Assembly: GCA_023247705.1 (NCBI GenBank)
Contig: JAHFFY010000011.1
Span: 19,457 to 59,843, forward strand
Source: Candidatus Omnitrophota bacterium
Lineage (GTDB): Bacteria; Omnitrophota; Gorgyraeia; Zapsychrales; JAHFFX01
Reading direction: 5' to 3'
Length of the DNA stretch: 40,387 nucleotides
Shown: positions 1,895-26,774 of the stretch, piece after piece
Layout: each line of letters begins with the position of its first letter
Position numbering within the stretch: position 1 is the first letter of the stretch
The notes under the pieces: model-generated
Told to the model about the DNA's origin: nothing
Databases searched by the model: none
Seen by the model: the letters and a program-made list of their open reading frames with translations, nothing else
Position numbers and translations under genes: made by a program

Positions 1895-2647
1895 TCATCT
1901 CTTTAATTTTTCAAACGTAACTTTATTATTCTTATAATCAATCTTAAAATTAAAATTAGCCAAAAAGGACATCCCCAAGAGCCCATCACAAACACTTTTT
2001 TCCGGGCCCAGTATATCTTGTAAAAAAACCGCGGCAGGGACATCGTTCATCTCTACGCTCTGAATTTTAATACTTTTGAGAGTGATCGGGACAGCTTCGA
2101 CCTGTCCGTTAAATCCTCGGATCTTTATTCTGTCAGATGATTTAGAGATCTTAATTCCTAGTTTGGCTGCCTTTTCTTCCGATAAATAAACTAGGGGAGC
2201 ACCCGTATCAAGAATGAAGGTCATTTTACTTTTACCGTTAACGTTGGCGTCAACGTATATTCGACCTGGAGCACCATATACTTTAACCGTTTTAGTTTGC
2301 TCTTCTGATGGTTGGGATTGCTGCTGCGAATTTGAAGATTGATTCTGCGTCTGAGGCTCTTTTACGTTCCATTTTGATTTGATTTGTGCAATTTCGGCGG
2401 GGCCAGAACGCTGGACATGATCAATCTGTGCTTTCTCAAATTTAGCCTTTCCAAACCCTAAATCCAATTCCACGAAATCCGGAGTTTCTTTTTTTACGAT
2501 TCCTTCAAGTTTTCTTCCATCTTTAAAAAAAATTATATCCGCCCGCAAAGATGACGAAAAGATAGAAATAAATGCTCCTAGTCCCAAGAGCATCGCAAAA
2601 AAAATTTTATAATTTGCACTTACCTGGATTATTTTATTAAAAATCAT
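1895..2647 (-). CDS. Secreted retropepsin-like aspartic protease with N-terminal KDGR domain
   Basis: This 250-residue protein has a signal anchor/peptide (about residues 12-36, ending near LRAD), a domain of about 45 residues beginning IIFFKDGRKLEG, a Gln/Ser-rich linker, and a C-terminal clan-AA aspartyl protease half. The catalytic motif FILDTGAPLVYLS and the later GLLGMSFLANF strand are typical of bacterial single-domain retropepsins, which work as dimers. AAGGAG lies 6 nt before the ATG. The KDGR domain is shared with the next gene upstream and with the protein at 16694-17416. It is probably exported; the substrate is unknown. Confidence 0.8.
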   Translation of the reverse strand: MIFNKIIQVSANYKIFFAMLLGLGAFISIFSSSLRADIIFFKDGRKLEGIVKKETPDFVELDLGFGKAKFEKAQIDHVQRSGPAEIAQIKSKWNVKEPQTQNQSSNSQQQSQPSEEQTKTVKVYGAPGRIYVDANVNGKSKMTFILDTGAPLVYLSEEKAAKLGIKISKSSDRIKIRGFNGQVEAVPITLKSIKIQSVEMNDVPAAVFLQDILGPEKSVCDGLLGMSFLANFNFKIDYKNNKVTFEKLKR

Positions 2648-2656
2648 AGCTCCTTT

Positions 2657-3199
2657 TCAATACCCATTTTGTGGTGATGGGGGTACATACTCTTGCGGAG
2701 GCGGCTTGGGGGAATTCTCTCCATTTTCATAAGATGATTTAACTTTTTGTACTTTAATCTGCGCACTCCGCGATGATTTTCGTTTTTGAATAATCGTATC
2801 CAGTGTTTTTACTGTTTTTTTATTCTGATCCATTTGAGATTGTGCTGGTGTTTGCTCTCTTTTCTGTTCCAGGGTGGACCATTGTTTCTTCATCTTCGCA
2901 TTGTTCTCTGCTGAGGCATAGCCGATATGGTCTATCTGTTCTTTCTGGAATTTGGCCTTTCCTCTTCCCAAATCCAACTCAACATAATCCGAATTTTCCT
3001 TTTTGATAATCCCATCCAATGTTCGTCCATCTTTAAAGAAAATGGTGTCGGCATTGAGTATTGGCGGAAGCATAAATAAAAATACGCCTATCAAAATACC
3101 CAATCTCCCTTGGACTCCAACAGAACGGACAGAGCCTTGAAAATTAGGAGAAAAAAGTTGAATAATCCATCGCGATTGAAACATATTTAATAAAAACAT
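2657..3199 (-). CDS. Secreted KDGR-domain protein, protease-less paralogue
   Basis: A 180-residue protein with a hydrophobic export segment (LGILIGVFLFMLPPILNA) followed by DTIFFKDGRTLDGIIKKE and VELDLGRGKAKFQKEQID, nearly the same as the N-terminal domain of the neighbouring retropepsin-like protein. The C-terminus is a basic, Ser/Pro-rich tail ending PPPQEYVPPSPQ instead of a protease. ATG at 3197-3199 was preferred over the TTG one codon earlier; AAGGTG at the pgi stop codon may serve as ribosome site. It probably arose by tandem duplication of the domain; the function is unknown. Confidence 0.7.
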   Translation of the reverse strand: MFLLNMFQSRWIIQLFSPNFQGSVRSVGVQGRLGILIGVFLFMLPPILNADTIFFKDGRTLDGIIKKENSDYVELDLGRGKAKFQKEQIDHIGYASAENNAKMKKQWSTLEQKREQTPAQSQMDQNKKTVKTLDTIIQKRKSSRSAQIKVQKVKSSYENGENSPKPPPQEYVPPSPQNGY

Positions 3200-3206
3200 C
3201 AATCTG

Positions 3207-16693: not shown

Positions 16694-17416
16694 ATGAGAA
16701 TATTCTGTTATCATGCCTTTATGATCATTTCTTTTATTAAACAGATCTTGAAATTATCTCCACCATCTAAAATCTTCAATTTATTTCTTTTCGGATTTAT
16801 TCTTCTGTCTCTCGGAAATTTGGCCACAGCCCAACCTGGACAACCGAACACTACGAACCCATCAGCTCAAAGCGCTAGCCCCGGCACAACCATTCAGACC
16901 ATTACGTTACGCGACGGGACTATACTCAAAGGAAAACTCATCGAAGTTGCAAACAATCAATATATTTTTGAGACTTCCTATTTCGGCCAGGTCAGCCTTA
17001 AAATTCCAGACGTCATCGGCATCACCAGCGAAAACTATTTTCCAACGATCACATCCCAAAATCTCCAACCCCCTCAAGGGCAAACGATGCAAAGTCAATG
17101 GGGAAACAATCCTCAATCATCCTCCCAAACCGCAAATGCTAGCCAGGGCCAAGCCCCTTTCAATCAACAGATTTCAGAGATGCAACAACAAATGATGTCC
17201 GATCCTCAAATCGTGGCCCAACTGAAAGAACTCGCTGAAGATCCGTCCATCCTTGAGGTTTTAAACGACCCGGATTTCATTGCCGCCGTCATGAACAAAG
17301 ACATCGAGAAAGTGAAAAACAATCCAAAGGCCCAAGCATTGCTTAACAACCCGAAGATCATTTCAATCATCAAGCAAATGGGCGGCGGGCAGCAAAACTC
17401 AGATTCTCCGCACTAA
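16694..17416 (+). CDS. Secreted KDGR-domain protein with STI1-like C-terminus
   Basis: This 240-residue protein has an export segment (IFNLFLFGFILLSLGNLATA), then IQTITLRDGTILKGKLIEV and LKIPDVIGI, a more distant member of the domain seen twice at 1895-3199. A Gln/Ser linker leads to a C-terminal helical region of DP/NP repeats (MSDPQIVAQLKEL, AEDPSILEVL, NDPDFIAAV, NNPKAQALL, NNPKIISII), the pattern of STI1/Hop-type chaperonin-binding helices. A second ATG at 16721 is a possible start; neither has a clear ribosome site. It would act outside the cytoplasm, which is unusual for STI1 repeats. Confidence 0.7.
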   Translation: MRIFCYHAFMIISFIKQILKLSPPSKIFNLFLFGFILLSLGNLATAQPGQPNTTNPSAQSASPGTTIQTITLRDGTILKGKLIEVANNQYIFETSYFGQVSLKIPDVIGITSENYFPTITSQNLQPPQGQTMQSQWGNNPQSSSQTANASQGQAPFNQQISEMQQQMMSDPQIVAQLKELAEDPSILEVLNDPDFIAAVMNKDIEKVKNNPKAQALLNNPKIISIIKQMGGGQQNSDSPH

Positions 17417-17419
17417 TCT

Positions 17420-17980
17420 CTAATTCTTTTTGCCATCCTGAAAAGAATGTCTTAACTGTCCGCACGCCGCGCTCACATCACGGCCCCGGGGCATACGAAT
17501 GGTGGCGTGGACACCTAACTCGGAAAGACGACTTCTGAAGGCGAGCATTTCAAGTTTCGTGGGAGGTTTATGATTGAATTCGACAACGGGATTATAGGGA
17601 ATCAGGTTCATCTTACAAATAATCCCTTTTAAAAGTTTGCCCAAAGACTGAGCGGCTTTTTCGGTACAGGTTAAACCCTGAATCAAAATATATTCAAACG
17701 TAATCTGTCGATTGGTTATTTGAGCATATTCCCGGCAAGCTTCAATCAATTCTTTAATCGGATATTTCTTATTGACCGGCATTAAAACACCTCGGGATTC
17801 ATCGTCATAACCATGCAATGAGATCGCCAATTCAATCTGGATATCCTGCTGGGCCAGTTCCTTGATCCGCGGCACCAGCCCGACGGTAGAAATAGTAATA
17901 TGCCGCGCCCCTATGTTCATTCCTTTATCTGAATTGATGATTCGAATGGCTTTCATTAAATGATCAAAGTTATCGAGCGG
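17420..17980 (-). pseudogene. rlmN: Host rlmN, C-terminal part (interrupted)
   Basis: The C-terminal 184 codons of a 23S rRNA/tRNA adenine-C2 methyltransferase. It begins at DNFDHLMKAIRI, has STVGLVPRI, LAISLHGYDDESRG, NLIPYNPVVEF and the catalytic Cys in SAACGQLRHSF. It lacks the radical SAM CxxxCxxC, which is in the N-terminal part at 25220-25738. Joining the two at GAGCGG restores MGTGEPL+DNFDH in frame, total 357 residues. An ATG at 18014-18016 inside the element could start a 198-residue polypeptide, but it could not be an active enzyme alone. Confidence 0.93.
17975..17980. other. Left attachment junction of the rlmN element
   Basis: GAGCGG at 17975-17980: host rlmN sequence lies to its left, element sequence (CTCCCCCATCAG) to its right. 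The same hexamer in the same orientation ends the element at 25220-25225, consistent with a crossover core. Confidence 0.75.
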
Positions 17981-18988
17981 CTCCCCCATCAGAGCAGACG
18001 CCACTACACTCTCCATCGGCCTTTAAGGTCTCTTGGATGCGCAAATCTTCAAAGAACGTCTGAAACGGTTCATATAATTCCCATGCCCTGACTTTCCGGT
18101 CTTCAATGACGATACGTTTAAAAATAAGACGCAGGACTTCTTTCAAGACGGCGAAATCGAGCTTGTTTTTTGTCCGGTCAAACTGGCCGGCGGCTCTTCG
18201 TACTAGGGCCGTGTATTCTTTGGATTTCTCCCGCTGGAGCATTTCCATGTCCAGCCTAGCCATTTCCCTGTTGATCTCCTGCTCTTCCCGATGCAGGTCA
18301 ATGGCCTTGTCTTTGGTCACATCGAGGGTGAACACATCGTTTAGATAGTCGTCCTGCAGTTTGGCCTGCCTCTTATAATTTTCGCGCAGCCGCTGTTTTA
18401 ACTGCCTCATTTTCCGGTTCAGTTCTTCATCCTGTGAATTGTCCTCATGCCGGACAAGGCCCAAGGCCCGCTCCTGCTGAACAACCGGATGCTGCAACAA
18501 ACTTTCCACGACTTTAAAAACAAGCGGCTCTATCCGTTCGGCCCAGATGCAGGAGTTCGGACAGGAGAATTGATAATCATGCCGGGCGCTACACCGGTAA
18601 ACGCGCCGCGTGGCCTTTGTCCGTCGGCTGGCCACAGTATTTGCGCCGCGATAGCCGGTTGCGCATTTGCCACAAAAGAGAACACCGGTTAAAACATATC
18701 CGGCGAAATTATGACGGTGGGCCTTTCCCTTGCGATTGGCAACGAGTTTTTCCTGAACAATATCATAATCTTCCTGCGCGATAAATCCTTCATGTTTGCC
18801 GTCAATGAGAATGATTTTGGAAGGATCATTTTTCAAACGCTTGGGGCCGGTCTTATCTTTTTGCTTTTTATTCTGAGCGTATCTGCCCCATTCTATTTTT
18901 CCCAGATAAATTTTATTGACGAGAATGTCGCGGATCATTGTGGTATAAAACCGGCCGCCGCCTCTTGACCTGTAACCGTTATCGTAGA

Positions 18989-19089
18989 GGGAACTGTTGC
19001 GAAATACCCCAAATCGGCGAAATTGGGCGATGGCTCTCGTCGAGAGAATCTTCAAAATTTTCCGAAAAAGGCCATTTCGCAACAGTCCC
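18989..19089. mobile_element. MITE-like insertion in the recombinase gene
   Basis: Inverted ends GGGAACTGTTGCGAAAT (18989-19005) and ATTTCGCAACAGTCCC (19074-19089), 101 bp in all, with an internal CTCTCG-T-CGAGAG hairpin. No transposase. The end sequence resembles ends of several IS families. No clear target duplication, so it may be the scar of a deletion between two copies. Confidence 0.65.
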
Positions 19090-19127
19090 ATAACATCCCC
19101 TGTTTTCCTGTGTGAAAACCGATGATT

Positions 19128-19168
19128 TGTTATACAAAGCGGTGGGCGTGTTATACATTTGTTATACA
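19128..19168. repeat. Three TGTTATACA direct repeats
   Basis: TGTTATACA occurs at 19128-19136, 19149-19157 and 19160-19168, between the recombinase remnant and the SWIM gene. The spacing (21 and 11 bp) suggests protein-binding iterons or integrase arm sites. Confidence 0.5.
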
Positions 19169-19210
19169 CGATATTGGGGTGGTTTTTTTGGGGGGGAAAG
19201 GCTTTTTCTG

Positions 19211-19960
19211 CTATAGCTGGACATTCAATCTCTCATCAAAAATCCTGACCAGAGGTTCTTCCCAACCGAAACAAGTCTGTTTGCCGCAAAGTGGCTCAAA
19301 GGCATCGATGCACGCGGGATCCGTTTGCGCAAAATCTTTAAGCATTTCCACGACCTCATTCATAAAACCGCCCACGATACCGTTGGAATCATCTACTCCG
19401 CCGACTTGCAATTTTCTATCCAACCGTAAAAGCAGTTTGACCAGAATATCCGCTGTCTGCCTGTTGGCCGGTAAATCAGAAACAATGGCTGACAACCTGG
19501 CACACCCTTCACGCAACGAATCCTGATTGGCAAACCACGTGCGCGATGGGCCGCGGTAAGGCTTGATATATTTCATCGATTCCGTTATGGATTTCTTGAC
19601 CTCGGCCAATTCGTCGTTGTTCAATGCTTCCCGCCGATCGCTGCGCTTAACTTCATTCCGCTGCTGTTTATCCTCAGCAGTCAAAGGCTTTCCGTTGAGG
19701 ACCGCATAAAGGGCCATGGCAACCATGTGTTTACATAATGTCCCTTTCTCTCCGAGATAACACGTGCAATGACCGAGTTTATAATTCCGGCCGGATACAG
19801 AAACGCGATACGATTGAGTCCCCAGGACAACGGCCGTAAAATCACCAAAAGCCTCTTTAACTTCCGTCACCTTACCGCTTTCATACAAATCCACCGCACG
19901 TTGATATGTCGCTTCATCGGTGGCGAATTTGATTTTTTTAAGGTCGTAGGTGAGAGGCAT
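19211..19960 (-). CDS. SWIM zinc-finger protein
   Basis: This 249-residue protein has a SWIM zinc finger, CxCx8CxH, with C65, C67, C76 and H78 (GHCTCYLGEKGTLCKHM). The N-terminus (YDLKKIKFATDEATYQRAVDL) is typical of bacterial SWIM proteins; the rest is helical without a recognised enzyme domain. SWIM domains bind DNA or protein. Its ATG follows the stop of the upstream helical gene after one base, so the two are coupled. It is cargo of the rlmN element; a defence or element-maintenance role is inference. Confidence 0.75.
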   Translation of the reverse strand: MPLTYDLKKIKFATDEATYQRAVDLYESGKVTEVKEAFGDFTAVVLGTQSYRVSVSGRNYKLGHCTCYLGEKGTLCKHMVAMALYAVLNGKPLTAEDKQQRNEVKRSDRREALNNDELAEVKKSITESMKYIKPYRGPSRTWFANQDSLREGCARLSAIVSDLPANRQTADILVKLLLRLDRKLQVGGVDDSNGIVGGFMNEVVEMLKDFAQTDPACIDAFEPLCGKQTCFGWEEPLVRIFDERLNVQL

Positions 19961-19961
19961 A

Positions 19962-20726
19962 TTACTTCTCCGACTTGATCTTGCGTGACAGAGGGTGTTG
20001 TTTACTCTTTAAGTTTATCTTCGTCTCAAAATCAGATATTCGTTTTTCCCGTTCAGGATAAATAATGCGGAATTCTTTCTTGAAAAAGTCGTTATAAAAA
20101 AACTGGAAGACCCTGAAATGGCCTTTGAGTAAAGCAAAGTAATAGGCTAAGAAATCCCGCAGTTCCACAGCATCAAAATAGTTTATTTGAACTTCTTCCC
20201 TTTTCTGGTCGGTGTCTATAACATGTTTATATTTATGGACGATCGACTGAAGCGAAGAATGCGCTGCAAAGCTACTTGCAACCTCATGAATTTTAATGAG
20301 GCTTTGGATCAGTGAATGCCCTTTGGTATTCTTTGCTGTGTAGTCTTTTATGCGCCAAAATATTTTTTTCTGCAAAGGATGGTTTTCTTCCAAGAAAGCC
20401 GGGATATCCCTCGGATTTTTCATAAAATATTGCGCATTAAACGAAGCGTCAATAGCAATTCGTAACGAAAAAAATGCTTTGCTAATGTGTGACTTAAAAA
20501 ATTGTGACATCCCAACGTAGAACTCGCTATGTGCCTGCAGATACATAATGCTAACCATAAACTGAACATTATTGTCCCCATTAACAGAAAACGCATGTAA
20601 CACGTCCTGATATATCTCGTCAAGCTCCTGCAAGAAACCGAGTTCACCCTTTAAATTTACGAGTGACACCAATTCGTTATGATGTTCGAAGCTAACAAAC
20701 TCAAGAATATTATTTTGCTTTGCCAT
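19962..20726 (-). CDS. Helical protein of unknown function, coupled to SWIM gene
   Basis: A 254-residue, predicted alpha-helical, soluble protein with a basic tail (KINLKSKQHPLSRKIKSEK). A central stretch, HISKAFFSLRIAIDASFNAQ then YFMKNP, resembles the long helix pairs of HEPN-like or abortive-infection proteins, but no catalytic Rx4-6H motif is convincing. It forms a tight pair with the SWIM gene. AT-rich relative to the host genes. I do not recognise the family. Confidence 0.6.
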   Translation of the reverse strand: MAKQNNILEFVSFEHHNELVSLVNLKGELGFLQELDEIYQDVLHAFSVNGDNNVQFMVSIMYLQAHSEFYVGMSQFFKSHISKAFFSLRIAIDASFNAQYFMKNPRDIPAFLEENHPLQKKIFWRIKDYTAKNTKGHSLIQSLIKIHEVASSFAAHSSLQSIVHKYKHVIDTDQKREEVQINYFDAVELRDFLAYYFALLKGHFRVFQFFYNDFFKKEFRIIYPEREKRISDFETKINLKSKQHPLSRKIKSEK

Positions 20727-20820
20727 TACAAACTGTTTGTGTTGAATAAAGTTTACAAATCAGATCAATGTCTTCAATCGAGATTAATTTCTTGGTATTT
20801 ATAGTTCTTATATCTGTCAT
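20710..20820 (-). CDS. Possible 36-codon small ORF upstream
   Basis: ATG at 20818-20820 starts MTDIRTINTKKLISIEDIDL and ends 17 bp inside the next gene's start. Poor ribosome site. It could be a leader peptide for coupling or chance. Confidence 0.2.
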   Translation of the reverse strand: MTDIRTINTKKLISIEDIDLICKLYSTQTVCNGKAK

Positions 20821-20862
20821 AAAATTATTCACCAACGGTAATTGTGAAGAAGTTTCCCTAAG

Positions 20863-22329
20863 CTATAATCTTGAAGCCGACTTCTGAGGCTGAGCATCAA
20901 TTACAAGCATTTCAATATCTAAACTAAAATCTTTTTTGAGCTTTGGTATTTCTCTCCTAATTCCATTTACCTTCTCAACATCTTCCTCTTCATAAACGAT
21001 CACAATAAAAAATCCTTTTTGAATCTTTTCGGCTTTTAAATAAGCTGGCAATTGTTTCTTAAGGCCATGTAGAAATTTCGTATTTCTGGCCAGCTTAACT
21101 TCAATTAAGACACGATTCTTGTAACCGCTGGAAAATTTAAAATCAACCGGCCCTTTTCCAACGTCGACCTCAGGAGAGAAATCGATATTATTTGCCTCGC
21201 AATAAGCAGAGATGACCCCCTCAAAATGTCGTTGGACAACCTTTTCCTTTTTCCCTTTTTCTGTCGAATCATCTCGAATCACTTGCCATCCTCTTCGAGT
21301 TTCCACATGGTGCTTATATCGTTCGATAATTTGTTGAACGACGGTTATAAATTCTGCAGAGGTAGTGGGGGATTTAAAATTGACTGGATCAACATCAAAT
21401 TGCTTTTTGCCAATGTGATACCATTTGTGGAGAAGGTCAGGGTCGTTTTGAATGTCATAGGGGTCAGCCTGTCTATTCTTTACAGCTTTTAAATATGATT
21501 CCCTTAAGTGTGCGGATTTTCTGGCGGCTTCAAACATCGTCTCTCTATCTACACTTTTCTTAATCTTGTTGCCGAATTGACTTCGAATTACATCATTTTC
21601 ATGAGAATAGCTATGATTCCAGAAATCAACGATATCGACTGTGGGCAAATGCCTTAAAAATGCTTTTGGAGATAGGATGACGAAATAATTCCCCCAAACA
21701 GTTTTTATACAAGGAAGTCGTACTTTGTCATCCTGCCAAACTCTTCCATCAGCATGATACATATTTCTTAATCTCTGAGGATGAAGCTTAATTTTCTTCC
21801 CCTCGCAAATTCTTTGAGTATATTTCACTAATTCTGGTTTGAGAAGATTAGCCATCATATCGCCAATTCTGTCAGCTCCAAATCCCTCTTTAAAAAGCTC
21901 CAATTCTTCAAAACAAGAAATAGAGGTTATACCTGCATCAATTAACTCGAATACCGCAGATAACAAAAGCTGGGCGTAGCCTTTTGACGAGCCAGCACCT
22001 CGGTTGCCTGGCTTGGAATACCCTAAATAAAGCTCATTCACTTCAGGAAATTCAAATGACCTTAAAAGAGGCTTATAGGTATCTCTATTTCGATGAACAA
22101 GTTTTGCCGCCTCTTGAAAGGCTTCGTTAAAAAAGTTTATTACCTTTGTATGTGAGCCTTTAAATTCAGGAATTTTATGGGAGGTTTTTTCAACTAAAAA
22201 TGGATCGATAAAAAGATTAGTATCGTGACCAATGACCGGATCAAACCAATTTTCCGTCCCCCTCAATTTAAGCTTAAAATATTCGCTAAATAGAATGTTC
22301 ATTCTTCGATCACGACCCAAGGGCTTCAC
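20863..22329 (-). CDS. PD-(D/E)XK nuclease-like protein
   Basis: A 488-residue protein from GTG (or 479 from ATG at 22300-22302). The C-terminal part has a restriction-endonuclease-like core: D396 in GPVDFKFSS, then E410 and K412 in VLIEVKLA, followed by FLHGLKKQLPAYLKAEKIQK, matching the D-(E)xK plus helix pattern. The N-terminal 330 residues (FDPVIGHDTNLFIDPFLVEK, GYAQLLLSAVFELIDAGITS) are not recognised and may sense the target. Cargo of the rlmN element. A restriction or anti-phage role is inference; a repair nuclease is the alternative. Confidence 0.7.
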   Translation of the reverse strand: MKPLGRDRRMNILFSEYFKLKLRGTENWFDPVIGHDTNLFIDPFLVEKTSHKIPEFKGSHTKVINFFNEAFQEAAKLVHRNRDTYKPLLRSFEFPEVNELYLGYSKPGNRGAGSSKGYAQLLLSAVFELIDAGITSISCFEELELFKEGFGADRIGDMMANLLKPELVKYTQRICEGKKIKLHPQRLRNMYHADGRVWQDDKVRLPCIKTVWGNYFVILSPKAFLRHLPTVDIVDFWNHSYSHENDVIRSQFGNKIKKSVDRETMFEAARKSAHLRESYLKAVKNRQADPYDIQNDPDLLHKWYHIGKKQFDVDPVNFKSPTTSAEFITVVQQIIERYKHHVETRRGWQVIRDDSTEKGKKEKVVQRHFEGVISAYCEANNIDFSPEVDVGKGPVDFKFSSGYKNRVLIEVKLARNTKFLHGLKKQLPAYLKAEKIQKGFFIVIVYEEEDVEKVNGIRREIPKLKKDFSLDIEMLVIDAQPQKSASRL

Positions 22330-22400
22330 AGATAGGCGAGAATTTTGTTTTCCAGCAGCTTTTTAAAATCCCGCAGGTGCATGGCCTGGCGGGCGGGAAT

Positions 22401-22682
22401 TCATCTTTTATTTTTCGATTTCTCATTATTACCCTTTTCTACTTCAGAATAATCCCAATGAATGAAAGGCATTTCATCGGACTCTTTAAAATTCCATGTT
22501 TCCCGGAAAGAATCAATAAATTCTTCCGGGATAAAAAATCTCGCCTCATAACAGGCATATCCGCTTTTGTCCTTACGGTCGTAAACCTCTATCCTTCCTC
22601 CTCTAAAATGCTGATATTTAGGATCCATGATTACTTCTTCAACGACGGTGAAAAAATATCTTTTTTGTTTTCGTTTAGCCAT
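22401..22682 (-). CDS. Small hypothetical protein (93 aa)
   Basis: A charged protein rich in aromatic residues (RKQKRYFFTVVEEVIMDPK, FIPEEFIDSFRETW, MPFIHWDYSEVEK) with a basic C-terminus. No recognised domain. It is followed by an 18-codon fragment, HLRDFKKLLENKILAYL (22328-22384), that looks like the C-terminal end of a lost gene. It lies in the element between Fic and the nuclease. Confidence 0.55.
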   Translation of the reverse strand: MAKRKQKRYFFTVVEEVIMDPKYQHFRGGRIEVYDRKDKSGYACYEARFFIPEEFIDSFRETWNFKESDEMPFIHWDYSEVEKGNNEKSKNKR

Positions 22683-22691
22683 ATCTCATCA

Positions 22692-22796
22692 TTATTCTTT
22701 GATTTTTGCCAGACCTTCCTCAATCAGCGTGTTGGACGCATGGGATTTAAAGACTGCGGCCAAATTCTCATCGGCAAACTTGGGAACACTAACTTC
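22692..22796 (-). pseudogene. C-terminal remnant of an unidentified gene
   Basis: Directly after the two stop codons of the Fic gene, in the same frame, runs EVSVPKFADENLAAVFKSHA then SNTLIEEGLAKIKE and a stop. It looks like real coding sequence without a start, probably the tail of a gene lost by deletion, or an earlier C-terminal extension. Confidence 0.35.
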
Positions 22797-22799
22797 TTA

Positions 22800-23837
22800 T
22801 CATTCCCTTGCACTCTCCGACCGCATCCGTTCAACGTATTCCGCCATGTCTCGCACGCGGACATACCAGGTCTTGCCTTTTTTCTGACCTTTAAGCTGAT
22901 CGCGGTTGATCAGGTTGCGCAGATAATCAGGAGAATAGTTATAAATATGCGCCAGATCACTCAATGGCAATTGCGCTTCTTTGTCGATATGTTGAAGGCC
23001 GATATTCTTCAAACGGGAAACGGCATCAGTGAGCCGGTCAAAAACAATAGCGACAATCCCGTCAAAATTCTGTTGATCATTCAGTTGATCAACGGCTTTC
23101 ACATCAAAACTTTCTCCCTGCTCAATCCGGCGGTGCAATTTCTCAAAACCGTCGTCGGCTTTCTCGAGCGTGTTATAGTAATGTTCCCGGTCATTCTTCG
23201 AAATGCCCTTAATGGCAATGTTGAGAAGTCCGCAGCCGATCAGAATGTACGACAACAATATTCTTCCCGCCCGGCCATTTCCATCCCGAAATGGATGGAT
23301 GGCCTCAAACCAGACATGGGCCATAGCACAGAGAGCAACAGGGTCATGCTTTCCATCTTTCAAACGCTGATTCACCCATTTAATCAAAAGCTCCATCGCC
23401 TGCCTGACATAAAATTCGCTGATCGGCGAGAATGTTGAATGCGCCACCTGCGCTGTTGTGTTTCGGAATTCTCCGATTTCGCCGATATAGAAACCCATTT
23501 CTTTTTCATAGCGCATCAGCAGTGTGTGAATCTGCTTGACGTCGGACATCCGCAGTGAAAATTCCTTTTCTTTATACTGATTAGCCGCGTATTCATACAT
23601 CGCCGAAGCTGATTCAAAATAACCGAGAATCGCAGCCGCCTTGTGTTTGTCCGTGCGCTTATTGTGCTCCAGAACATCAATGAGCTCGGTCCTGTTGGTA
23701 AAGACCCCCTCAATGGCAATCGAATTGCGGATTTCATCCTTAAATAAGGAGTACCATTCCGCGTTCGACACCTGCGTCAAACTTCCCTTTTTGGCACGCA
23801 GCTGTTCCAGCTCTTTTTTAATGGATTGACTTTTCAT
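22800..23837 (-). CDS. Fic family protein (class II, self-inhibited) with C-terminal winged helix
   Basis: This 345-residue enzyme probably transfers AMP or a related group to a protein target. The Fic motif HPFRDGNGRAGR is at residues 181-192. An inhibitory helix SIAIEG, matching (S/T)xxxE(G/N), lies N-terminal at 39-44, the class II arrangement that keeps the enzyme off by itself. A C-terminal winged-helix-like segment (LSDLAHIYNYSPDYLRNLIN) may bind DNA. The AT-rich upstream gap carries repeated TATCGAACCAT sites, suggesting self-regulation. Cargo of the rlmN element; possibly defence or toxin. Confidence 0.88.
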   Translation of the reverse strand: MKSQSIKKELEQLRAKKGSLTQVSNAEWYSLFKDEIRNSIAIEGVFTNRTELIDVLEHNKRTDKHKAAAILGYFESASAMYEYAANQYKEKEFSLRMSDVKQIHTLLMRYEKEMGFYIGEIGEFRNTTAQVAHSTFSPISEFYVRQAMELLIKWVNQRLKDGKHDPVALCAMAHVWFEAIHPFRDGNGRAGRILLSYILIGCGLLNIAIKGISKNDREHYYNTLEKADDGFEKLHRRIEQGESFDVKAVDQLNDQQNFDGIVAIVFDRLTDAVSRLKNIGLQHIDKEAQLPLSDLAHIYNYSPDYLRNLINRDQLKGQKKGKTWYVRVRDMAEYVERMRSESARE

Positions 23838-23842
23838 GGTTT

Positions 23843-24062
23843 ACCGAACCTATCGAACCATTCTATTTTATTCATATTTGATATATATAAGGTTATATAA
23901 TATATGATTCGAATTATAATTTATGGTTCGATAATAACATTGATTTTCATTAAAAGCAAGTCTAGTATGATCGAATTTACCGAACCAATAAAATGTATAT
24001 TATTCTTAAAATATAATGGGTTACGATATTAAAATTAACGAACCTGAACATATGGTTCGATA
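23843..24062. promoter_or_regulatory. GGTTCG/CGAACC repeat array upstream of fic
   Basis: TATCGAACCAT occurs at 23851-23861 and, inverted, at 23923-23933 and 24052-24062. Further ACCGAACC or AACGAACC copies are at 23843-23850, near 23979 and near 24037. The gap is about 80% A+T, so these GC cores stand out. It fills the 233-bp gap between fic and the cargo rlmN. Confidence 0.6.
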
Positions 24063-24070
24063 TTAAACAA

Positions 24071-25147
24071 TTACGAGGCGTGCCTCAACTGACCGCAAGC
24101 GGCGGCAATGTCGCGGCCGCGAGGGGTGCGCAAGGTGGCATGAACGCCTAATTCTTTGAGCCTATTTTGAAACTTAAGCATTTCTTCATGAGTCGGAGGT
24201 TTGTGCGGGAATTCCTGGACGGGATTATAAGGAATGAGATTCAATTTGCAAATCATGCCTTTCAGATTTTTGGCCAATTCCCGGGCCGCTTCTTCGGTGC
24301 AGGTAACGTCTTTAATCAGGATATATTCAAATGTAACCTGCCGGTGAGTCATTTTGATATATTTCCGGCAGGCGTTCATCAGTTCAGTAAAGGGATATTT
24401 TTTATTGACGGGCATAAGCTTGTTGCGAGACTCATCGTTATAGCCGTGCAAGGATATGGCCAACTCTATCTTAAAATCCTCTTTGGCAAACTGCATGATT
24501 TTGGGAACCAGCCCAACGGTCGAGATGGTAATCCGCCGCGCGCCGATATTGATTCCCCGCTCGTCGTTGACGATGCGCAGGGCCTTGAGCAGATTCTCAT
24601 AGTTATCAAAACTTTCCCCCGTTCCCATACAAACAATATGAGACAGCGGCTTTTTATGATGCTCCGCCTCTTCTTTGACGTGCAGAATTTGGGTCAAAAT
24701 TTCCGCCGTGGTGAGATTGCGCTTCCAGCCGCCGATGCCGCTGGCGCAAAATTTACAGCCGAACTTGCACCCATCCTGTGAGGAGATACAAACGGTTGTT
24801 CGGGTTGCCGTCGGAATCAGAACCGTTTCGACTTTTTCGTGATCGCACAAATCAAATAAAAACTTCGTCGTCCCATCTTTGGCTACTTGCTTTTTGGCAA
24901 TCGCCAAAGGATCAAGATCGAAATCCTGAGACAACCTTTCGCGCAGCGACGCGGGAAGGTTGCGCATCCGATCAAAAGACCAAACGCCCTTCTTGTAAAT
25001 CCATTCGAAAATCTGCGCGGCCCGGAATTCCTTTTCGCCGATGGATTCGCAGTATTTGGCCAATTCCTGAAAAGACAGATTCCGGATGTCCTGCTTTCGG
25101 CTTTCTAAACCGGCGTTCTTATTTTCTATTAATTCTTTCATATCCAT
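24071..25147 (-). CDS. rlmN: Full-length RlmN-type methyltransferase, element copy
   Basis: A 358-residue radical SAM enzyme that methylates C2 of an adenine in 23S rRNA and some tRNAs. C120 matches the methylene-carrying side Cys, the cluster is C127-C131-C134 (GCKFGCKFCASG), and C351 in AAACGQLRH is the second catalytic Cys. It is roughly 60-65% identical by eye to the interrupted host protein over its whole length, so it is not a recent duplicate. Oddity: the SAM-binding GTGEPL motif reads GTGESF (S179, F180). It starts 72 bp inside the element, behind the interrupted host 5' half, so the host rlmN promoter probably drives it. Confidence 0.93.
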   Translation of the reverse strand: MDMKELIENKNAGLESRKQDIRNLSFQELAKYCESIGEKEFRAAQIFEWIYKKGVWSFDRMRNLPASLRERLSQDFDLDPLAIAKKQVAKDGTTKFLFDLCDHEKVETVLIPTATRTTVCISSQDGCKFGCKFCASGIGGWKRNLTTAEILTQILHVKEEAEHHKKPLSHIVCMGTGESFDNYENLLKALRIVNDERGINIGARRITISTVGLVPKIMQFAKEDFKIELAISLHGYNDESRNKLMPVNKKYPFTELMNACRKYIKMTHRQVTFEYILIKDVTCTEEAARELAKNLKGMICKLNLIPYNPVQEFPHKPPTHEEMLKFQNRLKELGVHATLRTPRGRDIAAACGQLRHAS

Positions 25148-25195
25148 TTCATGATGACGATTAACCGCCCAGGTAAAACCGCTTTAAAAACTCCA

Positions 25196-25738
25196 TCACC
25201 GGCGTAATGAGACTGTATTGAGCGGTTCGCCCGTTCCCATAAAAACAATATTGGATAACGGCCGGGCATGCTTCAGCGATTCCTCCCGGACATGCAGGAC
25301 TTGAGTCACGATCTCGGCACAGCTCAAATTTCTCGACCATCCTCCGATGCCGCTGGCGCAAAACTTGCAACCGAACTTGCAACCGGCCTGAGTTGAAATG
25401 CAGGCCGTCGTTCTGGTCTCCGTTGGAATTAATACGCTTTCAATTTTCTCTTTATCAAGCAAATCAAACAAAAATTTGGTCGTTCCATCGACTGAGATCT
25501 CTTTTTTATAAATCAAATTTTGTTTTAGATCGAATTTCTGATCCAAATGCTTGCGCAGCTCTGCCGGAAAATTTTTTATATCAGAAAAAGACCAAACACC
25601 TTTCTGATAGATCCAGTTCAAAATCTGTTCGGCCCGAAATTTTTTCTCACCGATCGATTCCAGATAACGGCCTAGTTCTTCAAACGCCAGATTCCGGATG
25701 TCTTCCTTGTGAGGTGTTGATTGGGAATTTTGAATCAT
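25196..25738 (-). pseudogene. rlmN: Host rlmN, N-terminal part (interrupted)
   Basis: The first 173 codons of host rlmN, with C113, the cluster C120-C124-C127, and MGTGEPL at the junction. Seven element-encoded residues (NTVSLRR) follow to a TGA at 25196, giving a 180-residue product without the catalytic C-terminal Cys. The missing part is at 17420-17980. Confidence 0.93.
25220..25225. other. Right attachment junction of the rlmN element
   Basis: GAGCGG at 25220-25225, with element sequence on its left (ATGAGACTGTATT) and host rlmN on its right (TTCGCCCGTTCCCAT). It matches the hexamer at 17975-17980 in the same orientation. Confidence 0.75.
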
Positions 25739-25820: not shown

Positions 25821-26774
25821 TTAACCTTCCTTAAACTCGCCGATCTCACGAAATTTTTTATATCGGCTGGCCAGAAGGTCTTTTTTAGATAAAACGTTCA
25901 ATTCCTTAATGTATTTTAATAAAACCTTTTTAAGATTAACCATGACGGCATTCGGATCAAGATGAGCGCCGCCCGGCGGTTCCGGGACAATCTCATCGAC
26001 AACCCCGAATTTAAGCAGATCTTCGCCGGTCAATTTTAAGGCCTTGGCCGCTTCCGGCGCTTTAATACTGTTGCGCCACAGAATCGAAGCGCATCCTTCA
26101 GGCGAGATGACGGAATAATAAGCATTTTGTAGAATGCAAACCCGGTCAGCAATCCCGATCCCTAACGCGCCGCCGCTGCCGCCCTCTCCAATAACGGTCG
26201 CGATGACCGGGACCTTTAATTTGATCATGTCTTTCAAATTCGAGGCAATGGCCTGGGCCTGACCTCTCTCTTCCGCGCCAACCCCGGGATAAGCCCCGGG
26301 CGTATCGATCAAGACGATAATCGGAAGATTAAATTTTTCCGCCATGCGCATCAGACGCATGGCCTTGCGGTATCCTTCCGGATGAGCGCAACCGAAATTA
26401 CGTATGACGTTTTCTTTGGTGTCGCGTCCCTTTTGATGACCCATGACGAGGATATTTTCATTATTGATTTTCGCAAATCCAGCCACGATGGCAAAATCAT
26501 CGGCGAACGACCGATCGCCGTGCAATTCGACAAAATCCGTCATCATTAATTTAATATAATCCAGGGAATACGGGCGGTGCGGATGCCTGGCAATCTGCAC
26601 TTTCTGCCAAGGCGTCAGATTATTATAAATATCGGACTTCATCTTCGCTAACTTTTGTTCTAATTTAGCGATCTCCGGGCCCACATCCATCTGTTTAATG
26701 GCAGCCGAATTCTTCAGTTCTTTAATTTTGGTCTCTATTTCCAAAATCGGTTTTTCAAATTCCAAAATACTCAT
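25821..26774 (-). CDS. accA: Acetyl-CoA carboxylase carboxyltransferase subunit alpha
   Basis: A 317-residue AccA. The N-terminal helices (LEFEKPILEIETKIKEL) and DFVELHGDRSFADD are followed by the carboxybiotin-binding carboxyltransferase core: GHQKGRDTKENV, NFGCAHPEGYRKAMRLM, LIDTPGAYPGVGAEERGQA, GEGGSGGALGI and SPEGCASILW. It transfers CO2 from biotin to acetyl-CoA, the first step of fatty acid synthesis, with AccD, which is not in this window. It depends on the biotin ligase encoded here. It lies 82 bp upstream of the host rlmN 5' part on the same strand. Confidence 0.97.
   Translation of the reverse strand: MSILEFEKPILEIETKIKELKNSAAIKQMDVGPEIAKLEQKLAKMKSDIYNNLTPWQKVQIARHPHRPYSLDYIKLMMTDFVELHGDRSFADDFAIVAGFAKINNENILVMGHQKGRDTKENVIRNFGCAHPEGYRKAMRLMRMAEKFNLPIIVLIDTPGAYPGVGAEERGQAQAIASNLKDMIKLKVPVIATVIGEGGSGGALGIGIADRVCILQNAYYSVISPEGCASILWRNSIKAPEAAKALKLTGEDLLKFGVVDEIVPEPPGGAHLDPNAVMVNLKKVLLKYIKELNVLSKKDLLASRYKKFREIGEFKEG

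What the first reader, a model, noticed from the sequence alone, without database searches (positions are those of the whole stretch)
17420..25738. Integrated element splits rlmN and supplies a full-length replacement rlmN
Host rlmN is in two parts 7.2 kb apart. Joining them at the shared GAGCGG gives a continuous 357-codon gene. The insert contains a serine recombinase remnant at one end and, at the other, a complete rlmN (358 codons) of clearly different origin. An element that breaks a conserved RNA methyltransferase gene and carries its own substitute would neutralise the cost of its target choice. The sequence shows the layout; purpose is inference.
Basis: partly seen in the sequence, partly recalled or inferred. 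Interest (0 to 1): 0.93.

Follow-up and report, generated by a model that had tools for sequence, protein, structure and literature searches.

The report
Element that replaces its broken target
In an uncultured Omnitrophota bacterium a mobile DNA element sits in the middle of a conserved ribosome-modifying gene and carries a complete foreign copy of that gene, altered at the very spot where the element inserts; a few relatives show similar insertions, so it looks like a natural 'insert and replace' strategy.

Summary
Confirmed. The host rlmN is split at the codons of a conserved Gly-Glu-Pro-Leu motif by a 7.24-kb element with a decayed large serine recombinase at one end and a complete foreign rlmN at the other, the only intact rlmN found in the genome. 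Of 81 genomes of the order searched, three more carry insertion evidence: G002 with a near-identical element (element proteins 94-98% identical, host proteins 60-73%), G019 with an intact recombinase, and G034. The carried rlmN is under purifying selection. In two of three element lineages the complete rlmN has lost the Pro seen in 64 of 72 RlmN (GEPL to GESF or GENF), and with it most of the 6-bp shared core. So it probably rescues function and escapes re-integration; the second is inference. Debris in G002 and G034, and conflict between rlmN and accA trees, suggest that recombination can leave the foreign allele at the host locus. Of 29 related recombinase loci examined, 24 lie at the 5' end of a miaB-type gene. 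The principle is known from the Vibrio cholerae recA island; target, recombinase type, recurrence, recoding and candidate defence cargo are new here.

The parts
25220..25738 (-). 5' part (173 codons) of the native rlmN, ending at the crossover block
25220..25225 (-). attL core block CCGCTC (coding strand) = the Pro-Leu codons of GEPL
25148..25219 (-). element-side attL arm and leader between the N-part junction and the carried rlmN; the first 60 bases after the Pro codon match those in G019 at 26/60 and in G034 at 28/60
24071..25147 (-). complete carried rlmN (358 aa); starts 48 bp after the stop of the truncated native ORF, same direction
24608..24613 (-). codons AGT TTT (Ser-Phe) of the carried rlmN in place of Pro-Leu (CCG CTC) of the native gene
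22800..23837 (-). Fic protein with HTH; best PADLOC match SoFic (E 3.4e-35)
22401..22682 (-). 93-aa ORF, unknown, shared with the G002 element (96%)
20863..22329 (-). 488-aa protein, match to candidate defence family PDC-M36A (E 2.1e-25)
19962..20726 (-). 254-aa ORF, no family match
19211..19960 (-). SWIM zinc-finger protein, match to part of candidate defence family PDC-S62 (E 7.4e-17)
17970..19169 (-). large serine recombinase remnant: Recombinase and zinc-ribbon domains, catalytic N-terminal domain not found
   Evidence: longer relative P0001 in G019
18993..19086 (.). stretch bounded by perfect 13-bp inverted repeats inside the recombinase ORF; single copy in the genome; possibly linked to the truncation of the recombinase (inference)
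   Evidence: the repeat finder did not report it
17975..17980 (-). attR core block CCGCTC (coding strand)
17420..17974 (-). 3' part of the native rlmN; its open frame continues into the recombinase 3' end (ORF 17420-18016)
25821..26774 (-). accA, upstream neighbour of rlmN in nearly all order-level loci where both were found
16694..17416 (+). 240-aa ORF with a signal-like N-terminus, found downstream of rlmN in many relatives

Best explanation
A site-specific integrative element with a CcrB-like large serine recombinase recognises the DNA that codes for the conserved GEPL motif of rlmN and inserts there, splitting the gene. The element carries a complete rlmN next to its left attachment arm, in the direction of the target. 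After integration it lies as the next cistron behind accA and the truncated native gene, so it can be read from the host transcript (inferred) and supplies the lost 23S rRNA/tRNA methyltransferase (function inferred from sequence). Its Pro-Leu codons are changed to Ser-Phe, which removes most of the shared crossover block and probably makes it a poor substrate for the element's own recombinase (inferred). Later, homologous recombination between the carried gene and a native part can delete element DNA and leave the carried allele at the host locus (inferred from decayed forms). Shown: split gene, sole intact foreign copy, similar insertions in other genomes, substitution, decayed forms. Inferred: transcription, rescue, immunity.
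For: Split gene and exact shared block; only complete RlmN found in the genome. Recurrence: of 81 genomes of the order, G000, G002, G019 and G034 carry insertion evidence. G000 and G002 share Fic 98%, the 93-aa ORF 96% and carried RlmN 94% while accA is 72%, LysM protein 60%, Mg-chelatase-like protein 63%, so the element moved horizontally. Element arms of G019 and G034 match 40/60 (0 of 5000 shuffles as good); window against G034 28/60 (p 0.0018), against G019 26/60 (p 0.0076). Purifying selection, dN 0.017, dS 0.62. 64 of 72 RlmN rows have Pro; the 8 others are Ser-Phe (5 rows), Asn-Phe (2) and Asn-Leu (1). Chains named RlmN in the PDB have Pro and the chain named Cfr has Ala there, so the residue varies in the wider family. 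Decayed forms: G002 shows no N-part and only C-part residues 238-357; G034 has a broken N-part and a complete rlmN next to the 240-aa ORF. Tree conflict: G063 with its genus rejected, p 6.6e-5; G059, p 0.013.
Against: The window recombinase lacks its catalytic domain, so this copy is probably immobile. The carried copy in G019 keeps Pro (CCA TTT) and differs from the CCGTT block of its junctions only at the third codon base. In G034 the recombinase and C-part junction are gone, so it is not certain that its complete rlmN came with the element. A symmetry scan of the joined arms puts the centre weakly at the GA before the Pro codon (11/26 and 10/26 matches), which the carried copy keeps; the crossover point is not fixed. 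G018, G067, G037 and G059 have Ser or Asn alleles at the host locus with no recognisable element, so the alleles may arise or spread without one. For G037 a tree with its own genus is not rejected (p 0.47). The far end of the G019 element is not resolved: its contig runs into phosphate-uptake-like genes (by eye). G027, G057, G070 and G076 have rlmN cut by contig ends, so insertions there can be neither shown nor excluded.
Confidence: 0.78

Rival explanations
1. The carried rlmN is a passenger: a defence-type island happened to hold a foreign rlmN, kept for another benefit, and it was retained because the native copy was broken; there is no rescue or immunity design.
For: The island carries varied cargo, here candidate defence genes; in G034 two other ORFs lie between the N-part and the complete rlmN. 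An RlmN-type protein carried by C. difficile transposons, MrmA, gives macrolide resistance while the chromosomal rlmN stays intact (PMC11983580, passages).
Against: A complete rlmN is present with the insertion in all four element genomes, at the promoter-proximal edge 48 bp (window) and 27 bp (G019, from the ORF ends) behind the truncated ORF and in its direction. The carried protein is a strong RlmN equivalog match and nests among the order's chromosomal RlmN.
Confidence: 0.12
2. The Ser/Asn alleles are ordinary lineage variants that arose in some Omnitrophota (perhaps in family f5) and were captured by chance; the change has nothing to do with recombinase immunity.
For: G067, G018 and G063 of f5 hold the Ser-Phe allele at the host locus, and the element copies nest inside that group; G037 carries Asn-Phe without element; the G019 copy keeps Pro.
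Against: Pro is present in 64 of 72 rows and in 68 of 75 readable loci of an overlapping set, the rest being these groups. Two of the three substituted lineages include element-associated copies; a rough hypergeometric figure is 0.004-0.011 for 67-40 lineages, assuming independent lineages and chosen after seeing the data.
Confidence: 0.4
3. Two rlmN genes by ordinary horizontal transfer or tandem duplication, with later disruption of one copy by an unrelated insertion.
For: The rlmN tree conflicts more with host families than the accA tree (14 against 8 changes on 66 genomes).
Against: No genome of 81 showed two complete copies; both ends of the insert carry the same 6-bp block and the recombinase ORF abuts one of them; separate insertions share arm sequence.
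Confidence: 0.05
4. Assembly artefact joining two strains' rlmN genes.
For: The relatives named are metagenome assemblies and reads were not available.
Against: A matching layout occurs in G019 and element genes recur in G002.
Confidence: 0.03

Closest known systems
recA mobile element (RME) of Vibrio cholerae S24 (PMC4405046; abstract and passages seen)
   Same: Island inserted at a specific site inside a conserved housekeeping gene and carrying its own divergent copy; the authors state that the carried copy offsets the disruption.
   Different: Target recA; mobility genes listed are a phage integrase and a XerS recombinase; excision shown by experiment; the passages I saw say nothing of an altered att site in the carried copy or of repeated independent cases.
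SCCmec and enterococcal ECC cassettes, CcrAB recombinases (PMC6222049, passages seen)
   Same: Large serine recombinases; target is also a methyltransferase gene (rlmH); P0001's best NCBIfam match is CcrB (E 2.4e-69, 234 bits, cut-off 900).
   Different: They insert in the 3' region of rlmH; here the insertion is mid-gene in rlmN, and the recombinase is far below the family cut-off.
dusA-specific islands (PMC4482086, section 18 and passages seen)
   Same: Target is an RNA-modification gene; the authors argue that gene integrity is kept by sequence supplied by the island.
   Different: Only the 5' end is replaced, by a separate family of integrases; like the miaB-type loci here, not a whole gene copy.
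AICE03 of Streptomyces RLB3-6 (PMC9513070, passages seen)
   Same: Mobile element inserted in rlmN.
   Different: Conjugative element with an integrase and excisionase and 11-nt repeats; no replacement rlmN is mentioned in the passages seen.
MrmA-carrying transposons of C. difficile (PMC11983580, passages seen)
   Same: Mobile element carrying an RlmN-type methyltransferase gene.
   Different: The chromosomal rlmN stays intact and the carried gene gives macrolide resistance; it is not a replacement.
Synthetic Cleave-and-Rescue / home-and-rescue gene drives (PMC7951863, PMC7968924; search listing and abstract starts only)
   Same: A gene is disrupted and a working copy supplied; in those designs the copy is recoded (a search term found in the papers; details recalled).
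   Different: Engineered nuclease systems in animals; here a bacterial site-specific recombinase and horizontal transfer.

Membership tests
RlmN (TIGR00048) | Score above the curated cut-off | tested here: met
   Carried protein 405.5 bits against 290
RlmN (TIGR00048) | CxxxCxxC cluster motif and C-terminal ACGQL cysteine (motifs recalled) | tested here: met
   CKFGCKFC and AACGQLRH in the ORF; aligned over these to chains 3rf9 and 6fz6
RlmN (TIGR00048) | GEP motif (conserved, not a family rule) | tested here: not met
   GESF in the carried copy; GEP in 64 of 72 rows; Cfr chain 9p0p has GEA. The profile score is nevertheless well above cut-off
Large serine recombinases | Resolvase domain + Recombinase domain + zinc ribbon | tested here: inconclusive
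   Window ORF shows the last two only; the G019 relative P0001 aligns at its N-terminus to the TP901-1 integrase catalytic chain 3bvp and over 3-494 to the CcrB profile
SCC-type cassettes | CcrA/B/C above curated cut-off | tested here: not met
   P0001 234 bits against 900 for CcrB
SCC-type cassettes | Insertion in the 3' region of rlmH | tested here: not met
   Insertion is in the middle of rlmN
Target-gene-carrying islands (RME type) | Insertion at one site inside a conserved gene | tested here: met
   Same motif position in G000, G019 and, at the one junction left, G034; G002's junctions are lost
Target-gene-carrying islands (RME type) | Carries a complete divergent copy of the target | tested here: met
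Target-gene-carrying islands (RME type) | Excises and re-integrates | not testable with these tools
   Needs PCR on cells or DNA
Anti-phage defence island | A complete known defence system | tested here: inconclusive
   Single-gene matches to PDC-M36A, PDC-S62 and SoFic profiles; the Fic protein is below the NCBIfam SoFic cut-off (57 against 550 bits)

The most novel reading that the evidence does not exclude
A natural self-immune 'integrate and rescue' strategy: the recombinase targets a codon pair that most hosts keep because it lies in a conserved enzyme motif, while the element brings a working copy in which exactly that pair is recoded, so the copy rescues the host, cannot be re-targeted, and by recombination with the native halves spreads as an integrase-proof allele through an order of bacteria, repeatedly replacing a core ribosome-modification gene.
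Probability: 0.33. Interest if true: 0.85.

Novelty: new variant of a known kind. Interest (0 to 1): 0.64.

Why it matters
It shows how a mobile element can use a conserved, normally costly site inside a core gene: bring a replacement. If the recoding is protective, it is a natural counterpart of rescue-type gene drives, with more than one independent case, and offers a mechanism for the replacement of core translation genes by foreign versions. It also links a group of Omnitrophota recombinases to radical-SAM RNA-modification genes (rlmN, miaB type), and gives matched native and altered core sequences for a direct integration test.

Tried and rejected
Searching a class-wide sample with the intact G019 recombinase to find more rlmN elements: 199 of 384 genomes matched; of the 30 loci fetched only G019 itself has rlmN beside it; the window's own match was not among the fetched loci. 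Viral contigs searched with the same protein: one partial relative, 41% over residues 6-156. Phage and plasmid records: 39 and 248 records, all with best identity below 60%, not followed up. Search of the order-level loci for second rlmN fragments: window, G019, G034 and a broken gene in G004; three single weak hits in G042, G064 and G015 (37-40 bits) were taken as spurious. G023 and G047 have wide accA-rlmN gaps but no remnant. The idea that the Ser-Phe genomes G018 and G067 hide an element: both have a similar pair of glycosyltransferase-like ORFs (by eye) before the 240-aa ORF, and no C-part remnant was found. In G063 AbiE and Cas3 genes follow rlmN, suggestive only. AU test for G037: no rejection. 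Fixing the central dinucleotide by symmetry: inconclusive. A match of the 93-aa ORF to an anti-CRISPR family (E 0.0066, below cut-off) is treated as chance. Structure prediction and fold search were not used.

Rows dropped: I left out G004, G005, G007, G033, G036 and G110 (long branches or a broken gene), leaving 66 of 72. In one search two of the five requested tests did not finish and were run again. One search used the 66 genomes with rlmN, accA and LysM rows (of 72, 69 and 66); one search used 66 genomes with rlmN and accA after leaving out G000, G002, G019 and G034. The motif table has 72 rows, 71 of the order plus G110; six of the 77 RlmN-positive genomes of the order (G027, G049, G057, G069, G070, G076) are not in it because the match is a fragment, weak or was not fetched whole. 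The dN/dS figures skip the first 45 codons. Five of 80 loci were unreadable, and one of 29 recombinase loci (L061) was not read.
Full report
What is there. The native rlmN is split into a 173-codon 5' part (25220-25738, - strand) and a 3' part (17420-17974). Both junctions carry the block CCGCTC on the coding strand, at 25220-25225 and 17975-17980, and joining there gives a single 357-aa frame without stops; 7239 bp lie between the blocks. From the C-part side the insert holds: a recombinase ORF with Recombinase and zinc-ribbon domains but no catalytic domain found; a SWIM protein; a 254-aa ORF; a 488-aa protein; a 93-aa ORF; a Fic protein; and a complete rlmN of 358 codons starting 48 bp after the stop of the truncated native ORF. 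A perfect 13-bp inverted repeat lies inside the recombinase ORF (repeat finder did not list it); that stretch is single copy in the genome and may be linked to the truncation. PADLOC profiles match three cargo genes: PDC-M36A 2.1e-25, PDC-S62 7.4e-17, SoFic 3.4e-35. They are candidate defence genes, not a proven system.

The carried gene. It is the only complete RlmN found in the genome, scores well above the TIGR00048 cut-off and is 65% identical to each native part. Its nearest relatives are in G002 (94%), G063 (85%), G018 (83%) and G067 (75%). Between G000 and G002, dN is 0.017 and dS 0.62 after skipping the first 45 codons, so it is under strong constraint.

Recurrence. The host belongs to Omnitrophota, judged by the titles of the nearest named records; its own name was not shown. 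The order search covered 81 genomes; 77 have an RlmN match and none showed two complete copies. Four have insertion evidence. G002 has the carried rlmN directly behind accA, with Fic and the 93-aa ORF at 98% and 96%, while accA, LysM and Mg-chelatase-like proteins are only 72, 60 and 63% identical; its C-part survives only as residues 238-357, fused to a helicase-like ORF on another contig. G019 has accA, N-part and complete rlmN on one contig, and C-part with a 538-aa recombinase on another; its native parts group with a member of its own genus and its complete copy elsewhere. G034 has a broken N-part behind accA, two ORFs, and a complete rlmN beside the 240-aa ORF; whether that complete gene is all element-borne is open. 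The element-side arms of G019 and G034 match at 40 of 60 bases (0 of 5000 shuffles as good), the window arm at 28 and 26 of 60 (p 0.0018, 0.0076). Four further genomes (G027, G057, G070, G076) have rlmN cut by contig ends and cannot be judged.

Recoding at the core. The shared block is the Pro-Leu codon pair of the GEP motif. The native window gene reads GEPLDN (joined); the carried gene GESFDN, with AGT TTT for CCG CTC, five of six bases changed, while the neighbouring residues MGTGE and DN are the same. Across 72 RlmN rows, 64 have Pro; the eight without are the Ser-Phe rows G000, G002, G018, G063, G067, the Asn-Phe rows G034 and G037, and the Asn-Leu row G059. In 80 loci from a wider, overlapping search 75 were readable, 68 with Pro; the seven without are from these same groups. 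PDB chains named RlmN have Pro, the Cfr chain Ala, so the fold tolerates change in the wider family. The G019 copy keeps Pro but with CCA, against CCG at its junctions. I infer that recoding protects the copy; it is not shown. The crossover point is not fixed: a symmetry scan weakly favours the GA just before the Pro codon, which the carried copy retains.

After integration. In the RlmN tree the five Ser-Phe rows form one group (SH-aLRT 99*) although their hosts lie in two families, and accA places G063 inside its own genus and G018 and G067 with other genera. A tree keeping G063 with its genus is rejected (p 6.6e-5), likewise G059 (p 0.013), but not G037 (p 0.47). On 66 genomes the family label changes 14 times on the rlmN tree, 8 on accA and 10 on LysM; without the four element genomes, rlmN 13 and accA 8. 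The G000 and G002 copies differ sharply in the first aligned 25-codon block (55% DNA identity) and are 79-95% identical beyond; other pairs also diverge there, so this only suggests a recombination joint. I read these data as replacement of host rlmN by foreign alleles, in part through such elements.

Sister recombinases. The G019 recombinase matched 199 of 384 genomes of the class. Of the 30 loci fetched, G019 itself lies at rlmN; 24 of the other 29 have, overlapping the recombinase 3' end, an ORF with the GCQMN motif near its start, one has a GCKVN protein, three have neither and one was not read. Three of three tested are MiaB above cut-off (TIGR01574). So these relatives sit at the 5' end of miaB-type genes and give them a new start, as dusA islands are argued to do for dusA (PMC4482086, section 18). 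The rlmN elements insert mid-gene, where a new start cannot help, and bring a whole copy.

Known background. The closest precedent is the recA island of Vibrio cholerae S24, which inserts in recA and carries a divergent recA (PMC4405046, abstract and passages). SCC-type cassettes use Ccr recombinases and target rlmH (PMC6222049, passages); P0001 resembles CcrB but is far below its cut-off. A Streptomyces element in rlmN is in print (PMC9513070, passages), and C. difficile transposons carry an RlmN-type resistance gene while keeping rlmN intact (PMC11983580, passages). In a large survey of serine recombinases, the passages I saw name other target genes (PMC10083194). The searches 'serine recombinase + rlmN + attB' (no paper), 'serine recombinase + miaB' (two), 'rlmN + integration site + mobile element' (two), and broader ones showed no report of this arrangement in what I saw of their listings; the recA precedent surfaced only in the last search, so this absence is weak and covers only the held library.

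Verdict. Observation confirmed, interpretation supported. The strategy is a new variant of a known kind; the recoded core, further insertions in relatives and the link to miaB-type sister elements make it more than one more example.

Noticed in passing
L050-L078 (24 of 29 loci): CcrB-like large serine recombinases in Omnitrophota whose gene end overlaps the 5' end of a miaB-type gene, giving it a new start and N-terminus.
   Followed up: partly
L065; L055; L054: Related recombinases next to other genes, named by eye from the ORFs: mtaB-like (L065), ispE-like kinase (L055), antiporter-like (L054).
   Followed up: no
L036:3-4194: In G063 the Ser-Phe rlmN is followed directly by AbiEi, AbiEii and Cas3 genes, possibly remains of a defence-carrying element.
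   Followed up: partly
L141:2-1285: In G002 the native rlmN C-part (from residue 238) is fused in frame to a helicase-like ORF.
   Followed up: partly
window 1895-3202 and 16694-17416: Three ORFs with signal-like N-termini share, by eye, a similar DG..L.G segment; the last is the frequent downstream neighbour of rlmN in the order.
   Followed up: no
G000:C27:17025-18077: A second serine recombinase with a 537-aa open frame in the same genome; target gene not examined.
   Followed up: no
L013 and L113: G023 and G047 have unusually wide gaps (767 and 2128 bp) between accA and rlmN without rlmN remnants.
   Followed up: partly
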